A stretch of DNA of 64,000 nt, taken from Tremella fuciformis (taxonomy: Eukaryota > Basidiomycota > Tremellomycetes > Tremellales > Tremellaceae). The stretch lies in assembly GCA_032768795.1 (NCBI GenBank), contig CP136490.1, forward strand, positions 3,658,001-3,722,000. The letters are read 5' to 3'. The notes under the pieces are model-generated. The model saw nothing but the letters and a program-made list of their open reading frames with translations, searched no databases and had not been told where the DNA came from. This document shows, one piece after another, positions 35,057-44,825 of the stretch (the stretch's first letter is position 1; every line of letters begins with the position of its first letter). Both the position numbers and the translations under genes were made by a program.

Positions 35057-36085
35057 ATGACAGGTCTGCTCCAGTCTGCGCAAGACAAGGTGCTGGCTTC
35101 GCCGGCTCTGCTCAAAATGATATTCCGGCACTTACCAGTCAAGTCGCAGCTCGCCTGTATGCGAGTATCAAAATCATTCTTTGGTCCAGCGGCCACTCTC
35201 ATCTACTACCGACTCGACATTGGCCTGGACAGCCCGCCACACGCGCTGTCCGACTACCGATCCAAGTACATACCTCCATGGCTGCAAGATTCCGATGATA
35301 CCAAATTCGAGGTCGCCGCTAAGACAGCGCTGCTAGGTAGCGTGCAGCACGTCGTCATTCGCTCTCACTCGGCCGAGTGTGCGCCCTACGCCTGGTCGGC
35401 GATATTCTCCCATCGACTGCAGTCCGTGCGCGTGCATGCGACAAGGGGCACTGACGGGCGATACGCCGTATGCCTCGGCACCGCGTCCCCAGGCAATACA
35501 GAGGCCCGCTGTGCGCCGCTCGACTTCATCCCCTCGACATCCATACATACGCTCATCCTGCGGGGCCTAGCCGCCCCGTCCGCGCCTCAACAGGGCATAT
35601 CCTACGCCCGCCTACCGACATCCCTGCGCAAACTCGTGCTCGTCCTGGAGACTGACGCTGTCTTATATATACCCAGCGCACGCGAGACGGCGCTGAGCAT
35701 GCGCCACCTCCGTCCGACCATCTACGACCTCGTCATCGTCTTCCATTCCCCTGACCCTGCTCGCCCGTGGGCCCCTGCGCGCCGAAAAGATCGCGCACTG
35801 GCATTTCGCGCGTACGTCAAGTATCTCGCGAGTCTTGCCAGTGTCCCTACGCGCCTCGTGACGTTTGTCGGCCTGGGCAGGCTGGACTCGCGCTGGACGG
35901 GCCTTGAGGGCGGGGAGGAGGCGGTGCAGGCGCAGGTGGAGGCTATGATGCGTGGCAAGTTGGGCACGGTCAGTCATAAGGGCGTCAAGAGGGTCGGTAG
36001 GACCAAATTCCAGACGATGGCCGAGTTCATGACGACCGATGAGGACGTCTTCGACGAGTGTGAGAGGCTCCTATGGGCAACATAG
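35057..36085 (+). CDS. F-box-like protein (342 residues), member 2
   Basis: A single exon starts MTGLLQSAQDKVLASPALLK at 35057 and ends ECERLLWAT at 36085. The F-box-like helix set is PALLKMIFRHLPVKSQLACM / RVSKSFFGPAATLIYYRLDI. After it come alternating strand/helix units (VQHVVIRSHS, SIHTLILRGL, LRKLVLVLE, IYDLVIVFHS, TRLVTFVGLG), similar to a short leucine-rich-repeat solenoid. It would act as a substrate adaptor of an SCF ubiquitin ligase. It is adjacent to, and probably paralogous with, the disrupted gene that starts at 36361. Confidence 0.6.
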   Translation: MTGLLQSAQDKVLASPALLKMIFRHLPVKSQLACMRVSKSFFGPAATLIYYRLDIGLDSPPHALSDYRSKYIPPWLQDSDDTKFEVAAKTALLGSVQHVVIRSHSAECAPYAWSAIFSHRLQSVRVHATRGTDGRYAVCLGTASPGNTEARCAPLDFIPSTSIHTLILRGLAAPSAPQQGISYARLPTSLRKLVLVLETDAVLYIPSARETALSMRHLRPTIYDLVIVFHSPDPARPWAPARRKDRALAFRAYVKYLASLASVPTRLVTFVGLGRLDSRWTGLEGGEEAVQAQVEAMMRGKLGTVSHKGVKRVGRTKFQTMAEFMTTDEDVFDECERLLWAT

Positions 36086-36360: not shown

Positions 36361-36918
36361 ATGTCCCTGGCTACTCAGCCCATCACTCATCCTGACATCT
36401 TCGCTAACGTCTTGCCGCACTGCTCGCGCAACACGCTCGTTGCGCTCTGCGGCACCTCGCGCCAGCTCTCCACGCTCGTCCTCCCCCTGCTCTACTCCAA
36501 CCTCAAAGTCGACCTGACCTCCGCCAACCCCTTCGTGCCCGACCCCAATCCCAACAACCCACAATCGCGGCACATCTCCCCTCTCAAGGAATCCTACCTA
36601 CGCCTCTGCACGCGGCTGACCGTGCATACTCATGCAACGCAATGCGGCGAGCTCGCACCGGCATTGCCGAACCTGTCACTGCTCACGCTGCTCGTCGACT
36701 CCCGGCCGGGGTACTCGAACCTCTTTTGCAGGCGCTGGCCGACATGCGCGCTGCTGTCGGGCCTCACGCCCCGGCGCATGGTCGTCAAGATCGTGGGCGA
36801 CACACTCCCGTCGGCCATATGGCTCCGGCCCGCGCCGCTCCCTGCGTCGGTGGAGAAGGTCACGCTGCTCATTCGTACATGGACATTCAGTACCTTTGAG
36901 CTGATTGACAATCCCGTG
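36361..36918 (+). pseudogene. F-box-like gene, member 3: 5' part, cut by the LTR retrotransposon
   Basis: The start MSLATQPITHPDIFANVLPH at 36361 leads into an F-box-like segment (CSRNTLVALCGTSRQLSTLV). The frame runs to ...FELIDNPV at 36918, where the 5' LTR begins directly. The 3' part resumes at 44338. If the element and one copy of the 5-base target duplication are ignored, the frame continues without stop. The pre-insertion gene would have had about 346 codons, matching the 342- and 344-residue family members nearby. The intact LTR pair implies that the break is recent. Confidence 0.8.
36914..36918. repeat. Target site duplication CCGTG (left)
   Basis: CCGTG directly precedes the 5' LTR and is repeated directly after the 3' LTR at 44338-44342. 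This is the 5-base duplication made by Ty3/gypsy integrases. Confidence 0.9.
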
Positions 36919-37078
36919 TGTCAGGACTGTGGCACTGAGACTGTGGCGGAATGAGACAAGGCCAAGTGCCACACGGCCTGACTCAGCCAACCGCCCACTT
37001 GCCTCATCCGGGTGAAGTAGCCGAACTGCTAAATGCGGCACTCGGACTGTCTAGTATAGTTGAACGGTTTTCGAATAC

Positions 37079-37085
37079 ATATAGT
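37079..37085 (+). promoter_or_regulatory. TATA-like box of the chromovirus LTR
   Basis: CATATAG lies 26-32 bases upstream of the position where self-priming complementarity predicts the RNA 5' end (37110-37111). The spacing is that of a TATA element. Confidence 0.5.
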
Positions 37086-37109
37086 AGGCATTCGAGTAGA
37101 GAAGATCTC

Positions 37110-37124
37110 TAGTCGAATGTATCT
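37110..37124 (+). other. Predicted 5' end of element RNA, complementary to the primer-binding region
   Basis: TAGTCGAATGTATCT is the exact reverse complement of AGATACATTCGACTA at 37234-37248, a 15-base match. In the Tf1/sushi group, the first bases of the transcript fold onto the primer-binding site and are cut to prime reverse transcription; this matches that arrangement. Confidence 0.75.
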
Positions 37125-37233
37125 CTTGTACTCTCAGTCTACTTCTAGTAACCCTACTCGATTGCATACTCCCTGCGAGGCAACCTCGACTTCCCAGCTC
37201 GACGCGGACTATCCTACGTCCGGTCTTGACATT

Positions 37234-37248
37234 AGATACATTCGACTA
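37234..37248 (+). other. Self-primer-binding site, 2 bases after the 5' LTR
   Basis: AGATACATTCGACTA begins two bases (TT) after the LTR end. It has no TGG typical of tRNA-primed sites, but pairs perfectly with 37110-37124 inside the LTR. Confidence 0.75.
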
Positions 37249-37279
37249 TACTCGCACTGAGTATTGCAAGTCGAGGAAC

Positions 37280-38554
37280 ATGAGTGCTTCCACTCGCCAA
37301 CTACGGTCGCATGTCGACCCGGACTCGGAGGACCTCGACACTCCTACGGAGGTTGAGGAACTCCGACGTCAGATACTCGAGCTTCGCCAAGCCAAGGAGC
37401 AGAGCGACTCGGCCCTAGCGGCCGCCCGTCTCGCATTGGCCGAACGGGCCACCCCGGCAACCACTCATCACACGGGAGCCGCGCAAGGTACACCCCTGGA
37501 AGAGATCACGGACACGGATCTCGACCACGACCACTCGCCGCTCGAGTCCGCTCAGAGGATTTCGAACGCGACGAGATCCTTCAAGGTGAACCCCCCAGAT
37601 GAATATCACGGTGACCGCGATAAGCTACCGCAATACATTACCCAGGTACGAATGTACCTTAGCATGCAAGGCGGTGGCCTGGACTCGCGGAGACAAGTCA
37701 TTTGGGCGGCATCCTACCTACGGGGAAATGCCCTTCGTTGGTGGGAACCGTACTTCAACAGGCCGAAAATCGAACAACCCCTTTTTTGCTCCGACTTGGA
37801 CCATTTCATTTCCGAGTTACAGGACATGTTCGGCGACCCGGATAGACACCGAATTGCGGTGCAGCGACTCAAGAAACTGTCGCAAACCCGCACGGTCTCG
37901 GAATACTATGCACGATTCCTGGCGATCTCAGCCGATGTGGAGTATGAGGACCGTAGCCTACGAGACATGTTCGAGTCGGGCCTGCGACCCGAGATCCGCC
38001 TGGCCATAGCGAATCGCGAGCACGAGCCCAGATCCCTAAAAGAGCTGGCGGACGTAGCGATTCGTCTCAATGTACAGCAGGACAGTGTCCGCAACAACTT
38101 GCTGCAGCGCGAGCCGGAGCGAGCTACCTCGAAAAGGTTCGGCGAGGCGCCGGCGACAACTCACTCTCGCGACCGCGCCGACAGACCTTCGAGGGACTAC
38201 GTTCGATCCCCGAATCCGCCCTCTCGACCCCCGACCAACCAGAGATATCGGAAGGACGACGGGCACTCGAGGGGTAGGATCTCGCCCAGCGAAAGACAGC
38301 GACGGATGGACAAAAACCTGTGTCTATACTGTGAGAGCCCGGATCACATTGTAGCCAACTGCCCCACGGCCCCGAAAACGCGAGCTCCTCGAAACAGCCC
38401 CGCATCGGGGGCGAACGCAGTCCGCCTCAATGGTATTAGACACGAATCACCGAATGCGAACGCCAACCTCGATCATACGAAATTCGACAAAGACGATTCG
38501 GAAAACAAGTTGGCGTACCCCAGCCCCGCGGCGGCGAGGTACGCCTCAGCGTGA
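37280..38554 (+). CDS. Gag polyprotein of the chromovirus
   Basis: The first ATG after the primer site (MSASTRQLRS, 37280) opens 424 codons ending in TGA at 38552-38554. An amino coiled coil (VEELRRQILELRQAKEQSDS) is followed by a capsid-like region with WAASYLRGNALRWWEPYF, LQDMFGDPDRHRIAVQRLKK and YYARFLAISADVEYEDRSLR. These resemble the retrotransposon gag domain of Ty3/gypsy elements. Near the carboxyl end is one zinc knuckle, CLYCESPDHIVANC (CX2CX4HX4C), preceded by a basic Arg-rich stretch. It should form the virus-like particle and bind element RNA. The pol frame starts in the -1 register and overlaps the gag end by about 115 bases. Confidence 0.92.
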   Translation: MSASTRQLRSHVDPDSEDLDTPTEVEELRRQILELRQAKEQSDSALAAARLALAERATPATTHHTGAAQGTPLEEITDTDLDHDHSPLESAQRISNATRSFKVNPPDEYHGDRDKLPQYITQVRMYLSMQGGGLDSRRQVIWAASYLRGNALRWWEPYFNRPKIEQPLFCSDLDHFISELQDMFGDPDRHRIAVQRLKKLSQTRTVSEYYARFLAISADVEYEDRSLRDMFESGLRPEIRLAIANREHEPRSLKELADVAIRLNVQQDSVRNNLLQREPERATSKRFGEAPATTHSRDRADRPSRDYVRSPNPPSRPPTNQRYRKDDGHSRGRISPSERQRRMDKNLCLYCESPDHIVANCPTAPKTRAPRNSPASGANAVRLNGIRHESPNANANLDHTKFDKDDSENKLAYPSPAAARYASA

Positions 38555-41500
38555 CCGCCACCTTCGCCGCACTCCCAATCTCGACGCCAGCTATTCCTGA
38601 TACCCCAGACCTTTTCCATATACCTGTCGCGATCGCAAACAAACAATCACTAGTCTCCCGAGCGCTGCTCGACACCGGGGCCTCCCGGAACTTTATAGAG
38701 AAAACCTACGCCATCGAGTCGAAACTCGAATTGCGCCCTTCTAGAATCAAACAGACCCTACGATTAGCGGATGGCTCCCGCAGCGCTATCGAACAAGAGG
38801 TTACCCTCACCCTCTTGCTAGGGGAAGGGTTCCAGCCTTACACAGCTACATTTCTGGTCGCCAGACTAGATGTGGGCCCCATCATCCTTGGGGCGCCATT
38901 CTTCAAAGAAGTCAAGCCAACGCTCGACTGGGATAACCTGGCCATTCAACCTCCTCCCTCGAGATCACACCAGGGCAAGTCGGGAAAACTAAAAGCAATC
39001 TCCCTCATCTCGGCCGAGGCATTCGAACAGATTACGGACGAACCCAAGGGGGCGATCTACCTACGAGCCATCTCCGTGGACCCACCTCGGATGGAGGAAG
39101 TGGTACCTACGGAATACCACGAGTTCCTGGATGTCTTCTCGGAGTCGGAGGCCACCAAGCTACCTCCTCATAGGCCTTTTGACCACCGCATCCCGCTACT
39201 CGACGGCGCTGAGCCGACATTCGGCCCGATCTACTCGCTGTCCGTGACCGAACAGGAGGCCCTCCGAGACTACTTGGATACGAACCTCAAGAAAGGCTTT
39301 ATCGTACCTTCGGAGTCGCCAGCGGCCTCGCCAATTTTATTCGTAAAGAAGAAAGACGGATCCTTACGCCTCTGCGTGGACTACCGCAAGTTGAATAACA
39401 TAACCGTCAAGAACCGTTATCCCCTACCGTTGATCGGAGATCTACTAGACCAACTCCGTGCGGCCACTATCTACTCAAAAATAGACCTACGTGGCGCGTA
39501 CAACCTCCTCCGGATCGCCGCCGGGGAAGAATGGAAAACCGCATTCAGAACTCGGTTCGGGCTGTTCGAGTACCGAGTGATGCCATTCGGCCTCACGAAT
39601 GCCCCAGCCTCATTCCAACACTTGATGAACCACATATTCCGCGATGTGCTGGACATTTTCGTCATAGTCTATCTGGACGACATACTTATCTTCTCGAAGT
39701 CACGGAGCGAGCACGAGAGGCACGTCAAAGAAGTCCTACAACGACTGCGGAAATTCGAACTGTTCGCAAAACACGACAAGTGCCAGTTCCATACCGACTC
39801 CGTAGAGTTCCTGGGCTACATCATCGACCCGAAGGGCGTATCGATGGACCCGAACAAGGTGCGAGCGGTGTCGGCATGGCCAGCACCTCGGAACGTCAAG
39901 GAAGTCCAATCCTTCCTGGGTTTTGCAAACTTCTATCGAAGGTTCATAGCAGGGTTCGCCAAGGTAGCTAAGCCACTGCACGAACTCACTCGGAAGTCGA
40001 CCCCGTTCTCCTGGTCGGAACCGCACCAGGCGGCGTTCGACCTGCTCAAGACGAAAATGACGACCGGACCCGTCCTGAAACACTATGACCCAGACCAGGA
40101 ATGCGTGGTAGAGACCGACGCGTCCGATTTCGCGATCGGGGCAGTCATATCCCAGAAAGACGGGGAGAATGGGCTGCGCCCAGTCGCATATTCGAGTCGA
40201 GTCATGTCGCCAGCCGAGTTGAACTACCCGATACACGACAAGGAATTCTTGGCAATCGTGTACGCTTTCAAGGAATGGCGACACTACCTGGAAGGTGCCC
40301 GACACCGGACACAAGTGCTCACCGACCACCGCAGCCTGGAAACCTTCTTGTCAACCAAGCAACTGACCCGACGACAGGCACGATGGGCAGAGATGATGGC
40401 AGACTTCAACTTCGAGATCTCCTACCGTTCGGGGAAGCAAAGTACTAAACCGGACGCCCTCAGTCGAAGACCGGATTACCTCCCCACCGACTCGACAGCC
40501 ACGAGCCTGTCTCAGGAACTCAACGGACACAATTTCCGACCGCTCCTGTCCTCAGAACAGTTGCTACTCTCCCTACAAGTACAGCTGCTGGGCAAGACGC
40601 CGTCCGACTTGTACGAAGGGGACGACGAGCTGGGATCATTGATCGCGGACGGAAAAGTAACCCAAGACACGCAAGGATACTATAGACACTCGAAAGCATA
40701 CTACTGTCCCTCGAAGTCTCGGACAGAGGTCATCGAGGCACATCATGATATAGTCTCGGCCGGTCACCCTGGACCCCGAAAGACTTATCAGGCAATTAGG
40801 CAACACTGGTGGTGGCCGAACATCAAGACGGATGTAGAGAAATCTGCGGCGGAGTGCGAGAAGTGCCAAAGAAACAAGCCCTCGAGACAGAAACCGTACG
40901 GCCTCCTTCGACCGCTCGAACCGCCACTACGACCATGGGCAGACCTGTCTGTGGACTTCATAGTCGACCTGCCCACCTCGAATACCTACGACTCCATCAT
41001 GGTTGTCGTGGATCGCTTCTCGAAGATGGCAGTATTCGCGCCCTGTCACAAGTCGATCACCGCTAAAGGAATGTCCGAAATCTTCACGGATAGAGTATAT
41101 ACTCGTTTCGGCATACCCGACAGCATAGTGTCGGATCGTGGGAGTCTGTTCGTATCCAAATTCTGGAAAGCCTTCTGCCAAGGCCTAGGAACCAACCTGC
41201 GCTACTCGACAGCATACCACCCACAAACAGACGGACAAACCGAGAGAACGAACCAGTGGCTGGAACAGTACCTACGCAACTATGTGAACCTCGAACAAGA
41301 CAATTGGGTGCCCCTACTGCCGCACGCGGAGTTCTGCTACAATAGCACGCACCACGCCTCGCTGGGTATGAGCCCCCTGGAGGCCTACACCGGGAGAGCA
41401 TATCGTACGACCCTAGTCGATCCGCCAGGAGACCTGTCCGACCTGCAAGTTCCAGCAGCCGCCGACCGGGTTCAGCAGCTAGAACAGCTGCACCATCGAA

Positions 41501-42093
41501 TACGAGGGAACTTGCTCAGAGCCCAAGAAGGGTGGAAGAAGCAATATGATAAGCGTCGACGTACACCGGACTTCCAAGTAGGGGACAAAGTCTGGCTAAA
41601 TGGCAAGAACTTGCGCACGCTCCGTCCGACTAGGAAATTCGACCACCGTCACGTAGGACCGTACTCCATACTAGAAAGGATAAACGAGAACGCATATAAA
41701 CTGGACCTGCCTCCGGAATTGGTCGCCAATCGAGTTCACCCAGTCTTCAACGTAGAGCTCTTGTCGCACGTTCGTGGGGCTCGAGTCGAAGCGCAACCCG
41801 CGCTGGTCGCTCCGCCACCAGCCCCACACACTAGCGAGGAGGAGCTTTACGAAGTCGAAGGGGTACTGAAACGAGCTCGACGATCCCGGGGTAAGGCAAG
41901 ACAACTCGAAGACCAGGTCCTTGTGAAATGGAAGGGGTACCAACAACCGACCTGGCAACCAACAGACTCTCTAAAGGGGGACCCGCGGTTCGAGTCGTGG
42001 ATGAAGGGCATCGAGGACAGCCAAGTCGAATCCCTAGTATCCGATGCGAAACGCATAAGGCGCGCCCCGCGCTGGAGAACGGAGTCGGCATGA
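38440..42093 (+). CDS. Pol polyprotein of the chromovirus: protease, RT, RNase H, integrase, chromodomain
   Basis: The frame is open from 38440, just after an in-frame TAG, to the stop at 42091-42093. It has no early ATG, so it is probably made by -1 frameshifting or reinitiation near the gag stop. Domains in order: aspartic protease (LLDTGAS, about 38660), RT (FVKKKDGSLRLCVDYRK at 39340; VIVYLDDILIFSKS with YLDD at 39665), RNase H (VVETDASDFAIG, 40108), and an integrase zinc-binding HX3-5HX29CX2C region (HHDIVSAGH... CEKCQRNK, 40740-40880). The integrase catalytic core follows: D in LSVDFIVDL, D in VSDRGS, then E exactly 36 residues on in TDGQTERTN. A chromodomain (YEVEGVLKR... LVKWKGY... 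TWQP) closes the protein at about 41850-41970. The chromodomain is the mark of chromoviruses and usually tethers integration to histone-marked chromatin. Confidence 0.95.
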   Translation, partial: TRITECERQPRSYEIRQRRFGKQVGVPQPRGGEVRLSVTATFAALPISTPAIPDTPDLFHIPVAIANKQSLVSRALLDTGASRNFIEKTYAIESKLELRPSRIKQTLRLADGSRSAIEQEVTLTLLLGEGFQPYTATFLVARLDVGPIILGAPFFKEVKPTLDWDNLAIQPPPSRSHQGKSGKLKAISLISAEAFEQITDEPKGAIYLRAISVDPPRMEEVVPTEYHEFLDVFSESEATKLPPHRPFDHRIPLLDGAEPTFGPIYSLSVTEQEALRDYLDTNLKKGFIVPSESPAASPILFVKKKDGSLRLCVDYRKLNNITVKNRYPLPLIGDLLDQLRAATIYSKIDLRGAYNLLRIAAGEEWKTAFRTRFGLFEYRVMPFGLTNAPASFQHLMNHIFRDVLDIFVIVYLDDILIFSKSRSEHERHVKEVLQRLRKFELFAKHDKCQFHTDSVEFLGYIIDPKGVSMDPNKVRAVSAWPAPRNVKEVQSFLGFANFYRRFIAGFAKVAKPLHELTRKSTPFSWSEPHQAAFDLLKTKMTTGPVLKHYDPDQECVVETDASDFAIGAVISQKDGENGLRPVAYSSRVMSPAELNYPIHDKEFLAIVYAFKEWRHYLEGARHRTQVLTDHRSLETFLSTKQLTRRQARWAEMMADFNFEISYRSGKQSTKPDALSRRPDYLPTDSTATSLSQELNGHNFRPLLSSEQLLLSLQVQLLGKTPSDLYEGDDELGSLIADGKVTQDTQGYYRHSKAYYCPSKSRTEVIEAHHDIVSAGHPGPRKTYQAIRQHWWWPNIKTDVEKSAAECEKCQRNKPSRQKPYGLLRPLEPPLRPWADLSVDFIVDLPTSNTYDSIMVVVDRFSKMAVFAPCHKSITAKGMSEIFTDRVYTRFGIPDSIVSDRGSLFVSKFWKAFCQGLGTNLRYSTAYHPQTDGQTERTNQWLEQYLRNYVNLEQDNWVPLLPHAEFCYNSTHHASLGMSPLEAYTGRAYRTTLVDPPGDLSDLQVPAAADRVQQLEQLHHRIRGNLLRAQEGWKKQYDKRRRTPDFQVGDKVWLNGKNLRTLRPTRKFDHRHVGPYSILERINENAYKLDLPPELVANRVHPVFNVELLSHVRGARVEAQPALVAPPPAPHTSEEELYEVEGVLKRARRSRGKARQLEDQVLVKWKGYQQPTWQPTDSLKGDPRFESWMKGIEDSQVESLVSDAKRIRRAPRWRTESA

Positions 42094-42125
42094 GGTCTCT
42101 GCATAAAATACAACCTGGACTACAA

Positions 42126-43805
42126 TCACTTGCGGCGGCCGCGCTTCGTCTTGAGGGCGCCAAGCGCGGCGCGCTGTGGCGCCTTCGCCTCGCTAGCAGT
42201 CTTCTCCTTGGTCTGCAGTCGGGTCGTGCGGTGCGGGATGTCGGATTCCGACTCGAGGGACTCAGCTCGGGCAGACAGAAGTCGAGTAACCGAGTGGTGC
42301 CGGTCGGGAGACGAGTGAATGGAGGGCGCGGGCGAGTCCTCCAATAGCCGCTTCAAACCACCCCCACCAACCACCGAGGGACCCGCAACCCCCTCCTCAG
42401 CGCCTTCGGCCATCGCGTCGTCCAAAGAGCTCCAGTCGAGTGTAGACACCAACGGAGGATCACCCGAGTCTAGCAGAGCGACTTGAGACTCGCCGCGGAA
42501 TGCAGTCCGGTTCAAATGCTGCAAGTCAGATCTCGACAAGACCAAGACGAAATCCGACTACACTTACCTGATATTCGGAGTAATTGATTCTATAGATCTC
42601 CAAGATAGCATTACGGGCCAGACCGGGTTTCACGTCTGCAAGTAGAGCTGCCGCCTGGCGGTGAATCCCTGCGATAACACCCTTACGACGAACGACCTCG
42701 TCGGCAGGGAGGACGAGTTGAGCTCGGGGCCCAAGAGCGGTGTTGGGCGAAAGGGTGCAGTGTTTCGACTTGAGCATACACCCAAGACACCTATACGTCA
42801 GCGAAAATCGAGTACGGTAAGTCGAAAACATACTTCTGCGCCACATACCGCCTACCATCGACCTCCACAACCGGACAGACGCAGAGTAGACCCGAGTAGC
42901 CCGACATGGGAGGGCGATTATGGGACACACAGGCTGCACAACGCTCCGCCCCCATCAGGACCCCCCACGAGCCGGAGTCGAGCGCTTCGAGGATGTTCGA
43001 CCCGGTATCCGCGGTGTCGCCAGTACGAGTCGAAATGTACGACTCGATCCACGAGTAGAAGGACTCGATCCTCGAGTCGTCGTGTCCAACGACCTCCGGT
43101 TCTTTCAGCGGGTACCGATACACGCGATTCAGACGCTTGACCACCAACTCTTCGCCTTCAACCCTCGGGAACACCCCACTAGGAGTTCGACCTGCCTTGG
43201 TCGGCGAAGGAGTAGGGATCGGCTGACCCGGGCTCGAGTCGGGGGCCGAGCCGAACAAGTCGCTCAGACCGACCTCAGTAGCCGAAGACACGACTTTGGC
43301 AGGCGGAGATGCGGCCTTAGGGAAGCCCAAAGGGCGATGAGCATGACCCTTTTGACTAGCCGGTGTCTCGGGAATGCTGCTCGAGCCGAAGGGTGGTTGA
43401 CGAGAGATAGGAGAGGGATCCAAGATGTGTTTCTTGGGTGAGAGACGACCGATGGGAGCAAGGGGGGCCTTGAAAGGCAATTGAATAGGCGGGAATACCG
43501 ACTCAGCACGAGCAGGAGTCGACTTTACGGGAGAGGAACCCTAACAGCTTAACTCGAAATTCGTCTACTGGCATTCGACTCACGGATTTATCCCTTTCTC
43601 GACGTAAAGCCGCCTTCCCCGCAGCAACCAGCTTGTCGACCTCAAACTTGAAAATGGCATTTTCGGGCTGCGCTTCGAGGTTCTCTCGAGCGGCCTGGAG
43701 TTGAATTCGATACTCGTCCGCAGAGGCCGTACCGAGATACGCCTCATCGTAGGCATCTTGTATGCCCTGCTCAACATTGAATCCGGCCAGCTCGTCGTCG
43801 ACCAT
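42126..43805 (-). CDS. Antisense, four-exon accessory gene carried inside the retrotransposon
   Basis: On the strand opposite to gag-pol, four exons (43584-43805, 42834-43540, 42568-42790, 42126-42518) join through GT-AG introns of 43, 43 and 49 bases. They give exactly 515 codons including the stop: 514 residues starting MVDDELAGFNVEQGIQDAYD. Two of the introns hold in-frame stops and exon 3 is reached in phase 2, so the open joined frame is unlikely by chance. The protein has an amino helical region (QLQAARENLEAQPENAIFKF), a Pro/Ser middle, a cysteine cluster (ERCAACVSHN, LLCVCPVV, QKCLGCMLKSKHC) that may bind zinc, and a basic tail KTKRGRRK. I do not recognise the family. It ends 32 bases from the pol stop, tail to tail. 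Confidence 0.75.
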
Positions 43806-44006
43806 GATGAGAACAGTACGAAAGACGACTCAAGAAAGACGAAGTCCGGACACAACAACCAGAACAACAACTTGCATGAAGGAGTAAACAACGGCGTCTC
43901 TCGGGCTTACGGGCGTGGCATCTACCTCAACGAACCGAACACACAGTGCCAAAGGACGCAACGTCGAATAAAGGATGTCAACAACCGAGGATGTCGGGTC
44001 GACATC

Positions 44007-44020
44007 AAAGAAGAGGGGGG
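44007..44020 (+). other. Polypurine tract of the chromovirus
   Basis: AAAGAAGAGGGGGG lies four bases (CGAC) before the 3' LTR. The 15 bases GGGGGGCGACTGTCA spanning tract and LTR edge (44015-44029) recur exactly at the matching junction of the miniature element (57447-57461, minus strand). Confidence 0.85.
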
Positions 44021-44024
44021 CGAC

Positions 44025-44337
44025 TGTCAGGACTGTGGCACTGAGACTGTGGCGGAATGAGACAAGGCCAAGTGCCACACGGCCTGACTCAGCCAACCGC
44101 CCACTTGCCTCATCCGGGTGAAGTAGCCGAACTGCTAAATGCGGCACTCGGACTGTCTAGTATAGTTGAACGGTTTTCGAATACATATAGTAGGCATTCG
44201 AGTAGAGAAGATCTCTAGTCGAATGTATCTCTTGTACTCTCAGTCTACTTCTAGTAACCCTACTCGATTGCATACTCCCTGCGAGGCAACCTCGACTTCC
44301 CAGCTCGACGCGGACTATCCTACGTCCGGTCTTGACA
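44025..44337 (+). repeat. 3' LTR (313 bases)
   Basis: By eye, every base matches the 5' LTR at 36919-37231. Identical LTRs mean that few or no mutations have accumulated since insertion. Confidence 0.93.
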
Positions 44338-44825
44338 CCGTGTTCCAGCAGATGCCCGGCACGGTGCGTCGGTTCGACATTGTCGTCTTGCCGCCCAAGG
44401 GGAGCGGCGGTGTATGGGAGGCGCAGAGGCAGTACTACGGCGACGTGTACTGGTACCTCTTCGACAGGCTCTGTGTTAATCTCGCCAAGCTCGCCTGTCG
44501 GGATATACCCCAGGTGGGCTTCTGGGGGTTGGGCTGTGTCGAGCCAAAGTGCGTAGGCATGGCCGCGCACACGGACACAGCAATGGAGGAGAAACAGGTG
44601 CAGACCAAAGTCGCGGAGAGGATCAGGCTGGAGCTTAGTAATCTGGGCGCAATAGGGGCAGTGAGGTTTGGGAGTATCAACGACTGGAAGGAGCAGAGCG
44701 GCTGGCAGGAGGTTCTAGAAGGTGAGGAGCTCGATGAGCCAGGAGCAGCGAAGCCGGTCTTGTCAGAGCCCGCGGAATGTGCGCCGGACCTGCTGGCGGC
44801 ATGGAACGGCTGGTATATGTTGTGA
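44338..44825 (+). pseudogene. F-box-like gene, member 3: 3' part after the retrotransposon
   Basis: After the right-hand CCGTG copy the frame continues FQQMPGTVRRFDIVVLPPKG and runs through a strand/helix region (VGFWGLGC, GAVRFGSIND) to LAAWNGWYML, stop TGA at 44823-44825. This is the carboxyl 160 residues of the gene that starts at 36361. The piece has no ATG of its own near the junction in this frame except one within the LTR read-through, so it is unlikely to be expressed as a useful protein. Confidence 0.8.

What the first reader, a model, noticed from the sequence alone, without database searches (positions are those of the whole stretch)
42126..43805. A spliced, opposite-strand accessory gene carried inside an intact Ty3/gypsy chromovirus
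Between pol and the 3' LTR lies a four-exon gene on the antisense strand. Its three GT-AG introns (43, 43 and 49 bases) join to an exactly open 514-residue frame with a cysteine cluster (CAAC, CVC, CLGC...C) and a basic tail KTKRGRRK. Because its introns are antisense to the genomic RNA, they are not recognised when the element RNA is made and so survive each round of retrotransposition, the same logic as antisense-intron reporter cassettes. Extra and antisense reading frames are known in some plant Ty3/gypsy elements, but I do not recognise this protein. It could be a captured host gene, a silencing suppressor or a regulator of the element; the function is inference.
Basis: partly seen in the sequence, partly recalled or inferred. 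Interest (0 to 1): 0.88.

Follow-up and report, generated by a model that had tools for sequence, protein, structure and literature searches.

The report
Backward spliced gene inside fungal retrotransposon
A fungal jumping gene carries, on the strand opposite to its own genes, an extra intron-containing gene that evolution keeps intact, and similar backward genes sit in many of the other jumping genes sampled in the same genome, which suggests a general but little-studied control layer for such elements.

Summary
The window holds a recently inserted Ty3/gypsy element (identical 313-nt LTRs, 5-nt target duplication) with a four-exon gene on the opposite strand between pol and the 3' LTR. It is under purifying selection: of 15 full-length copies found, 14 keep the frame and 15 the three introns; intron 1 varies by 7 nt while the only exon indel in a frame-keeping copy is 3 nt; dN/dS is 0.14. 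No intronless copy was found among 17, as expected if sense RNA is the template. The gene is not unique: 12 of 18 Ty3 loci sampled, this one included, carry antisense frames with a six-cysteine module or a variant judged by eye; a fixed pattern finds it unspliced in 8 of 18, and in none on the sense strand or in shuffles. A profile of the module ranks Zn2Cys6 domains first among solved structures, at weak E-values. Most likely it encodes a nuclear zinc-binding regulator serving the element; that function is inferred, and no RNA evidence was available. Antisense accessory genes are known in plant Ty3/gypsy elements and Botrytis Boty, so this is a new variant of a known kind.

The parts
36914..36918 (.). 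5' copy of the target-site duplication CCGTG (3' copy at 44338-44342)
36919..37231 (+). 5' LTR, 313 nt, TGTCA...TGACA
37234..37248 (+). probable primer-binding site, complementary to LTR 37110-37124 (self-priming type)
   Evidence: inverted repeat I4 (20 nt, 90% complementary) and the sequence; self-priming as in Tf1 is recalled knowledge
37226..38554 (+). gag reading frame as listed (first ATG at 37280)
   Evidence: Pfam Retrotrans_gag 46.4 bits
38551..42093 (+). pol (protease, RT, RNase H, integrase, weak chromodomain)
43584..43805 (-). antisense gene, exon 1 (ATG at 43805)
43541..43583 (-). intron 1, 43 nt (50 nt in L022, L023 and L024)
42834..43540 (-). exon 2
42791..42833 (-). intron 2, 43 nt, splits the cysteine module
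42568..42790 (-). exon 3
42519..42567 (-). intron 3, 49 nt
42126..42518 (-). exon 4, stop at 42126-42128
42757..42940 (-). cysteine module CAAC..CVC..CLGC.MLKSKHC, residues 275-321, interrupted by intron 2
42129..42152 (-). basic tail KTKRGRRK, nuclear-localisation-like (inference)
43806..44024 (-). 219 nt between 3' LTR and the antisense ATG; candidate promoter (inference)
   Evidence: 26 of 219 changes against L024
44007..44020 (+). polypurine tract
44025..44337 (+). 3' LTR, identical to the 5' LTR

Best explanation
The stretch is a genuine antisense accessory gene of a Ty3/gypsy retrotransposon. It is transcribed towards pol from a promoter in the 219 nt next to the 3' LTR or in the LTR itself, spliced three times, and translated into a 514-residue protein. 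Because the full-length sense RNA carries these introns as their complement, the spliceosome does not remove them, and reverse transcription of that RNA preserves them. The protein has a basic nuclear-signal-like tail and a cysteine module that looks like a divergent member of a Zn2Cys6-like module shared by antisense genes of many Ty3 loci of the same genome. Most likely it enters the nucleus and binds DNA or chromatin to regulate the element, for instance LTR transcription or escape from silencing. Shown: gene structure, frame conservation, purifying selection, introns in every full-length copy found, recurrence of the module across loci. Inferred: transcription, splicing in the cell, zinc binding, nuclear action. 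Rough levels: real selected gene 0.95; shared module 0.75; nuclear regulator of the element 0.45.
For: 15 full-length copies found; 14 of 15 keep the frame, 15 of 15 the GT-AG introns; +7 nt in intron 1, -3 nt in an exon. dN/dS 0.135 (dS 0.197) and 0.146 (dS 0.479); changes by codon position 19/11/68 and 47/29/141. dS of the pol C-terminal part in the same pairs is similar (0.153, 0.485). A model search not told the exons gives the same exons. Six-cysteine pattern antisense in 8 of 18 loci, sense 0 of 18, shuffles 0 in 100 sets, 0 of 84 other stretches of the window. The module profile aligns to this protein at 11.3 bits against at most 1.5 in 200 shuffles. The nine best PDB matches of the profile are all Zn2Cys6 transcription factors by name, E 0.008-0.33. 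In two B-type elements whose post-pol DNA blastn does not align, two antisense module frames persist in the same order, 47% identity over 100 residues for one pair.
Against: No RNA data: transcription and splicing are not shown. The strict Zn2Cys6 spacing is not met by this protein; Pfam finds nothing in it, nothing above cut-off in eight sister proteins, and Zn_clus in 1 of 10 module segments below cut-off, no better than an iron-sulfur family in the same segment. Searches of the genome with single proteins do not link the families: this protein found none of the other loci's genes, and the D protein found only itself and one match at E 0.08. The profile match carries a composition bias of 7.9 bits, and its E-value is for one sequence. 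In the best two PDB matches the two halves of the module match in swapped order. The motif was set after seeing the sequences. The fold of exon 2 was unusable, pLDDT 44.5. A relative of element G has pol followed directly by the LTR (L063), and 6 of 18 loci lack the module, so it is not needed by every Ty3 element. Introns, upstream region and LTR change less than synonymous sites, which I cannot explain.
Confidence: 0.6

Rival explanations
1. The antisense transcript itself is what matters: it forms double-stranded RNA with the sense RNA and limits copy number; the protein is incidental.
For: Antisense RNA regulation is discussed for such elements in PMC7264820 (passages read); the gene lies wholly between the LTRs, so a full-length sense RNA would overlap it.
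Against: dN/dS 0.14, third-position excess, a frame-preserving exon indel and kept splice sites point to protein function.
Confidence: 0.15
2. A host gene captured once and carried as cargo, of use to the host or to nobody.
For: Spliced structure looks like a cellular gene; Zn2Cys6 domains are abundant in fungal hosts (recalled).
Against: No non-element relative recognised in the genome; the three matches outside the copies, on contig 10, were not placed in or outside an element. Cys-module frames at the same antisense position in 12 of 18 Ty3 loci, one pair clearly homologous between diverged elements.
Confidence: 0.12
3. Envelope-like or other structural function, or integration targeting, rather than regulation.
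For: Position between pol and 3' LTR is that of env-like genes in plant elements (PMC7264820, passages).
Against: Opposite strand, basic tail, cysteine module resembling DNA-binding clusters. Targeting is not excluded.
Confidence: 0.1
4. Chance open frame or decayed sequence.
For: None found beyond the lack of database relatives.
Against: Selection and copy comparison, shuffles.
Confidence: 0.02

Closest known systems
brtn, antisense gene of Boty-like Ty3/gypsy elements in Botrytis cinerea (Zhao et al. 2011; original not held; seen only through passages of PMC7264820, PMC8365987 and PMC4227169)
   Same: Fungal Ty3/gypsy element with an additional antisense gene
   Different: Whether brtn has introns or a cysteine module could not be checked; protein not compared
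Antisense aORF of plant Retand/Grande/RIRE2 elements (TRP28 domain, gene23; PMC11963269 abstract and passages; PMC7264820 passages)
   Same: Antisense gene between pol and 3' LTR, present in most copies and in several families, proposed nuclear or DNA-binding regulator
   Different: No TRP28 match here; Retand is a non-chromovirus plant lineage; the word intron does not occur in the main text of either paper
HBZ/APH antisense genes of HTLV (PMC10186651, passages)
   Same: Spliced antisense gene in a reverse-transcribing element; HBZ is nuclear and lowers 5' LTR transcription
   Different: bZIP or unrelated protein, promoter in the 3' LTR; no homology claimed
Zn2Cys6 (Gal4-type) binuclear cluster
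   Same: Six-cysteine spacing in several sister modules; PDB profile search ranks Pho7, GAL4, LAC9, PPR1, LEU3 first; GAL4 is also the best, insignificant PDB match of the D protein alone, E 0.41
   Different: This element's own module has longer loops and a seventh cysteine; Pfam cut-off not reached

Membership tests
Ty3/gypsy LTR retrotransposon | LTRs, gag, pol in the order PR-RT-RH-INT | tested here: met
Chromovirus | C-terminal chromodomain in integrase | tested here: inconclusive
   Pfam Chromo 19.3 bits, E 0.0011, cut-off 25.1
LTR element with antisense accessory gene (aORF-3R) | Antisense gene between pol and 3' LTR, present in most copies | tested here: met
   15 full-length copies found, 14 with open frame
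LTR element with antisense accessory gene (aORF-3R) | Antisense transcription | not testable with these tools
   no RNA data
Retand TRP28 antisense ORF | TRP28 domain (PF04195) | tested here: not met
   0 Pfam families at E <= 10
Botrytis brtn | Sequence homology to brtn | not tested
   sequence and original paper not held
Zn2Cys6 cluster | C-x2-C-x6-C-x5-12-C-x2-C-x6-8-C (spacing recalled) | tested here: not met
   this protein has C-x2-C-x15-C-x-C-x14-C-x2-C-x6-C; the spacing is met by segments from L042 and L061
Zn2Cys6 cluster | Profile similarity | tested here: inconclusive
   PDB profile search best E 0.0081, nine of the top nine Zn2Cys6 by name, halves swapped in the best two; Pfam below cut-off in 1 of 10 segments, absent in 9

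The most novel reading that the evidence does not exclude
Many Ty3/gypsy elements of this fungal lineage carry their own antisense-encoded, often spliced, Zn2Cys6-like nuclear regulators, an undescribed class comparable in logic to HTLV HBZ, in which antisense introns make expression of the regulator depend on a host-spliced antisense mRNA while the genomic RNA keeps the introns.
Probability: 0.45. Interest if true: 0.78.

Novelty: new variant of a known kind. Interest (0 to 1): 0.62.

Why it matters
It would be a natural counterpart of the antisense-intron retrotransposition reporters and would give fungal LTR elements a self-encoded regulatory layer like that of complex retroviruses. The recurrence of one cysteine module, antisense, in many loci of one genome makes the question of what antisense accessory genes do directly testable in a fungus.

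Tried and rejected
Database relatives: none for the spliced protein (7994 candidates scored) nor for a four-sequence exon-2 alignment (3266 candidates); for the 118-residue antisense protein of another element (D) one 99% match, from a 903-nt contig (4 candidates). Pfam for the protein: nothing at E <= 10. Plasmid collection: no match. Fold of exon 2 from a single sequence: discarded. No fold of the spliced protein was requested, because the tool takes proteins that the DNA gives letter for letter. An early choice of intron 2 at 42796-42754 was wrong (its end is not AG) and was replaced. CpG hypermutation as the reason for high synonymous divergence: not supported. Splicing of the two half-modules of locus L040: only a weak 40-nt candidate, unresolved. 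dN/dS of the two B genes against L062: sequences too diverged to align by DNA, numbers discarded. Leave-one-out profile scores printed nothing and are not used. The rotifer paper PMC5408684 (passages) describes extra ORFs but its main text does not hold the word intron. The listings of ten paper searches showed no fungal spliced antisense gene of this kind; I opened six papers, all but one for passages only and that one also for its abstract; subscription papers are mostly absent from that library.

Full report
What is there. The window lies at G000:C1:3658001-3722000 of a 28.14-Mb genome in 11 contigs. At 36919-44337 sits a Ty3/gypsy element with identical 313-nt LTRs, a CCGTG duplication on both sides, a polypurine tract, gag (37226-38554 as listed, first ATG 37280) and pol (38551-42093). 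Between pol and the 3' LTR, on the other strand, runs the gene of the finding, 43805 to 42126. Its three GT-AG introns (43, 43, 49 nt) give 514 codons plus stop. In 100 Markov shuffles the longest spliced frame under one fixed set of splice rules was 744 nt, against 1545 nt observed.

Selection. A DNA search of the genome gave 19 matches, which make 17 copies (a lower bound): 12 full-length at 98.7-100% identity, the window's own included, three full-length at 93, 92 and 86% (L022, L023, L024), and two in pieces. The three introns with GT and AG ends are in 15 of 15 full-length copies. The frame is open in 14 of 15; L023 carries a frame-breaking insertion in exon 3. Intron 1 is 50 nt in L022, L023 and L024 instead of 43, while the only exon indel in the frame-keeping copies is one codon lost in L024. 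dN/dS is 0.135 (window-L022, dS 0.197) and 0.146 (window-L024, dS 0.479), with changes by codon position 19/11/68 and 47/29/141. One reverse-strand frame, whose third positions coincide with those of the gene, also shows dS above dN (0.173/0.031 and 0.349/0.094), but less sharply, and each sense frame of the region has 14 to 16 stops; the four other control frames show dN above dS. The C-terminal part of pol in the same two pairs (577 and 767 nt) gives dN/dS of about 0.14 and 0.07 at similar dS. Among the 12 close copies there are 29 synonymous and 17 nonsynonymous differences, with about three times as many nonsynonymous as synonymous sites. The gene is therefore maintained as protein-coding, less strictly than this part of pol in the more diverged pair.

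Intron survival. If antisense mRNA were ever the template, intronless copies should exist; none was found among 17. One copy lacks query bases 180-385, which includes intron 1 but is not an exact intron loss. This fits reverse transcription of the sense RNA, in which the introns appear as their complement. The logic of antisense-intron reporters is recalled knowledge.

A shared module. I sampled post-pol DNA of 17 further Ty3 loci, chosen from 39 scored pol matches and 150 scored RNase H matches. L043, a second copy of the L040 type, was fetched too but left out of the count, and L062, L063 and L064 were fetched later as relatives of loci already counted (module in L062 and L064, none in L063). 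Within 1.3 kb around and after the end of pol, an unspliced pattern C-x2-C-x5-10-C-x5-25-C-x2-C-x4-8-C lies antisense in 8 of 18 loci (L055, L057, L059, L060, L061, B, D, G) and sense in 0 of 18; 100 shuffled sets gave none, and 0 of 84 other stretches of the window did. The pattern was set after seeing the sequences. Variants judged by eye are in the window's element, L056 and L058, and two half-modules in L040 whose splicing is unresolved, making 12 of 18. L050-L054 and L041 lack it. The 18 loci are not all independent: G and L055, for example, are related. LTRs were sought in five of the sampled elements and found in four: in three (L040, L042, L044) the antisense frames lie inside the element, and in L041 the LTR follows pol almost at once; none was found for B within the stretches fetched. 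For the others the 3' LTR was not mapped, so that the frame lies inside the element rests on its closeness to pol.

Relation of the modules. A profile of 11 module segments aligns to the cysteine cluster of the window's protein at 11.3 bits (composition bias 7.9, E for one sequence), against 1.5 bits for the best of 200 shuffles of it. A profile of 10 segments, the long-loop B1 segment left out, was searched against solved structures: Pho7, C27B12.11c, GAL4, LAC9, PPR1 and LEU3 rank first. Nine of the top nine distinct sequences are Zn2Cys6 factors (by name, recalled), but E-values are only 0.008 to 0.33, and in the best two the halves match in swapped order; GAL4 aligns in order. Pfam Zn_clus is hit by 1 of 10 segments, below cut-off, beside an iron-sulfur family of similar weakness. 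Single-protein searches of the genome do not connect the families. The window's own module breaks the strict Zn2Cys6 spacing. So it may work like, or derive from, such a module; membership is not shown.

Deep conservation of the antisense genes. Family B (L039) and a related element (L062) give a single blastn match of 46 nt, within the first 105 nt of the stretches, at the end of pol. Yet both carry two antisense module frames in the same order; the pol-proximal ones are 47% identical over 100 residues (E 2e-29 for the pair), the distal ones weakly similar (E 2e-6), and both distal ones have KKRKV after the module. A looser pattern gave a third antisense match in L062 that I did not take as a module. 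Against this, a relative of element G (L063, 91% identical over 189 nt at the pol end) has pol followed by the LTR with no such gene. The gene can thus be missing.

Mechanism. Most likely the protein is a nuclear, zinc-binding regulator acting for the element, with a promoter in or beside the 3' LTR. Transcription, splicing in the cell, zinc binding and targets are inferred. Rivals are an antisense-RNA role, cargo of host origin, and a structural or targeting role.

Comparison with what is known. Antisense genes between pol and the 3' LTR are known in plants (PMC11963269, abstract and passages; PMC7264820, passages) and in Botrytis Boty as brtn (seen through passages of citing papers only). 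HTLV HBZ is a spliced antisense regulator (PMC10186651, passages). The three-intron structure with copy-level evidence of selection, and the recurring cysteine module, are what I saw no report of in the listings of ten searches of an open-access library.

Unexplained. Against L024, the LTR differs at 18 of 313 sites, the 219-nt upstream stretch at 26 of 219 and the introns at 14 of 135, far below the synonymous divergence of 0.48 in the gene and in the pol part; CpG sites do not account for it.

Noticed in passing
window 36914-36918 / 44338-44342: The element interrupts a host reading frame: joined flanks give a 295-residue open frame. Pfam finds no family at E <= 0.01 in the frames on either side; an F-box gene lies just upstream at 35057-36085.
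   Followed up: partly
window 37110-37124 and 37234-37248: LTR-internal stretch complementary to the site just after the 5' LTR: probable self-priming of reverse transcription as in Tf1 (recalled), and a hint to the RNA start.
   Followed up: partly
G000:C1:4436662-4438781 (L021, L026): A copy of the gene is split by about 435 nt with a 5-nt repeat of query 959-963, possibly a solo LTR insertion.
   Followed up: no
L039, L042, L062: Some elements carry two antisense cysteine-module frames each.
   Followed up: partly
L063: Close relative of element G in which pol is followed directly by the LTR, without the antisense gene.
   Followed up: partly
G000:C10:634933-635501 and C10:743744-743869: Three diverged matches to the antisense protein, 44-60% identity, two of them with stops inside.
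   Followed up: no
G000: 150 Ty3 RNase H matches scored (of 212 candidates) in a 28-Mb genome, a lower bound.
   Followed up: no
LTR, introns and upstream stretch of the element versus L024: Non-coding parts diverge much less than synonymous sites; CpG is not the cause.
   Followed up: partly
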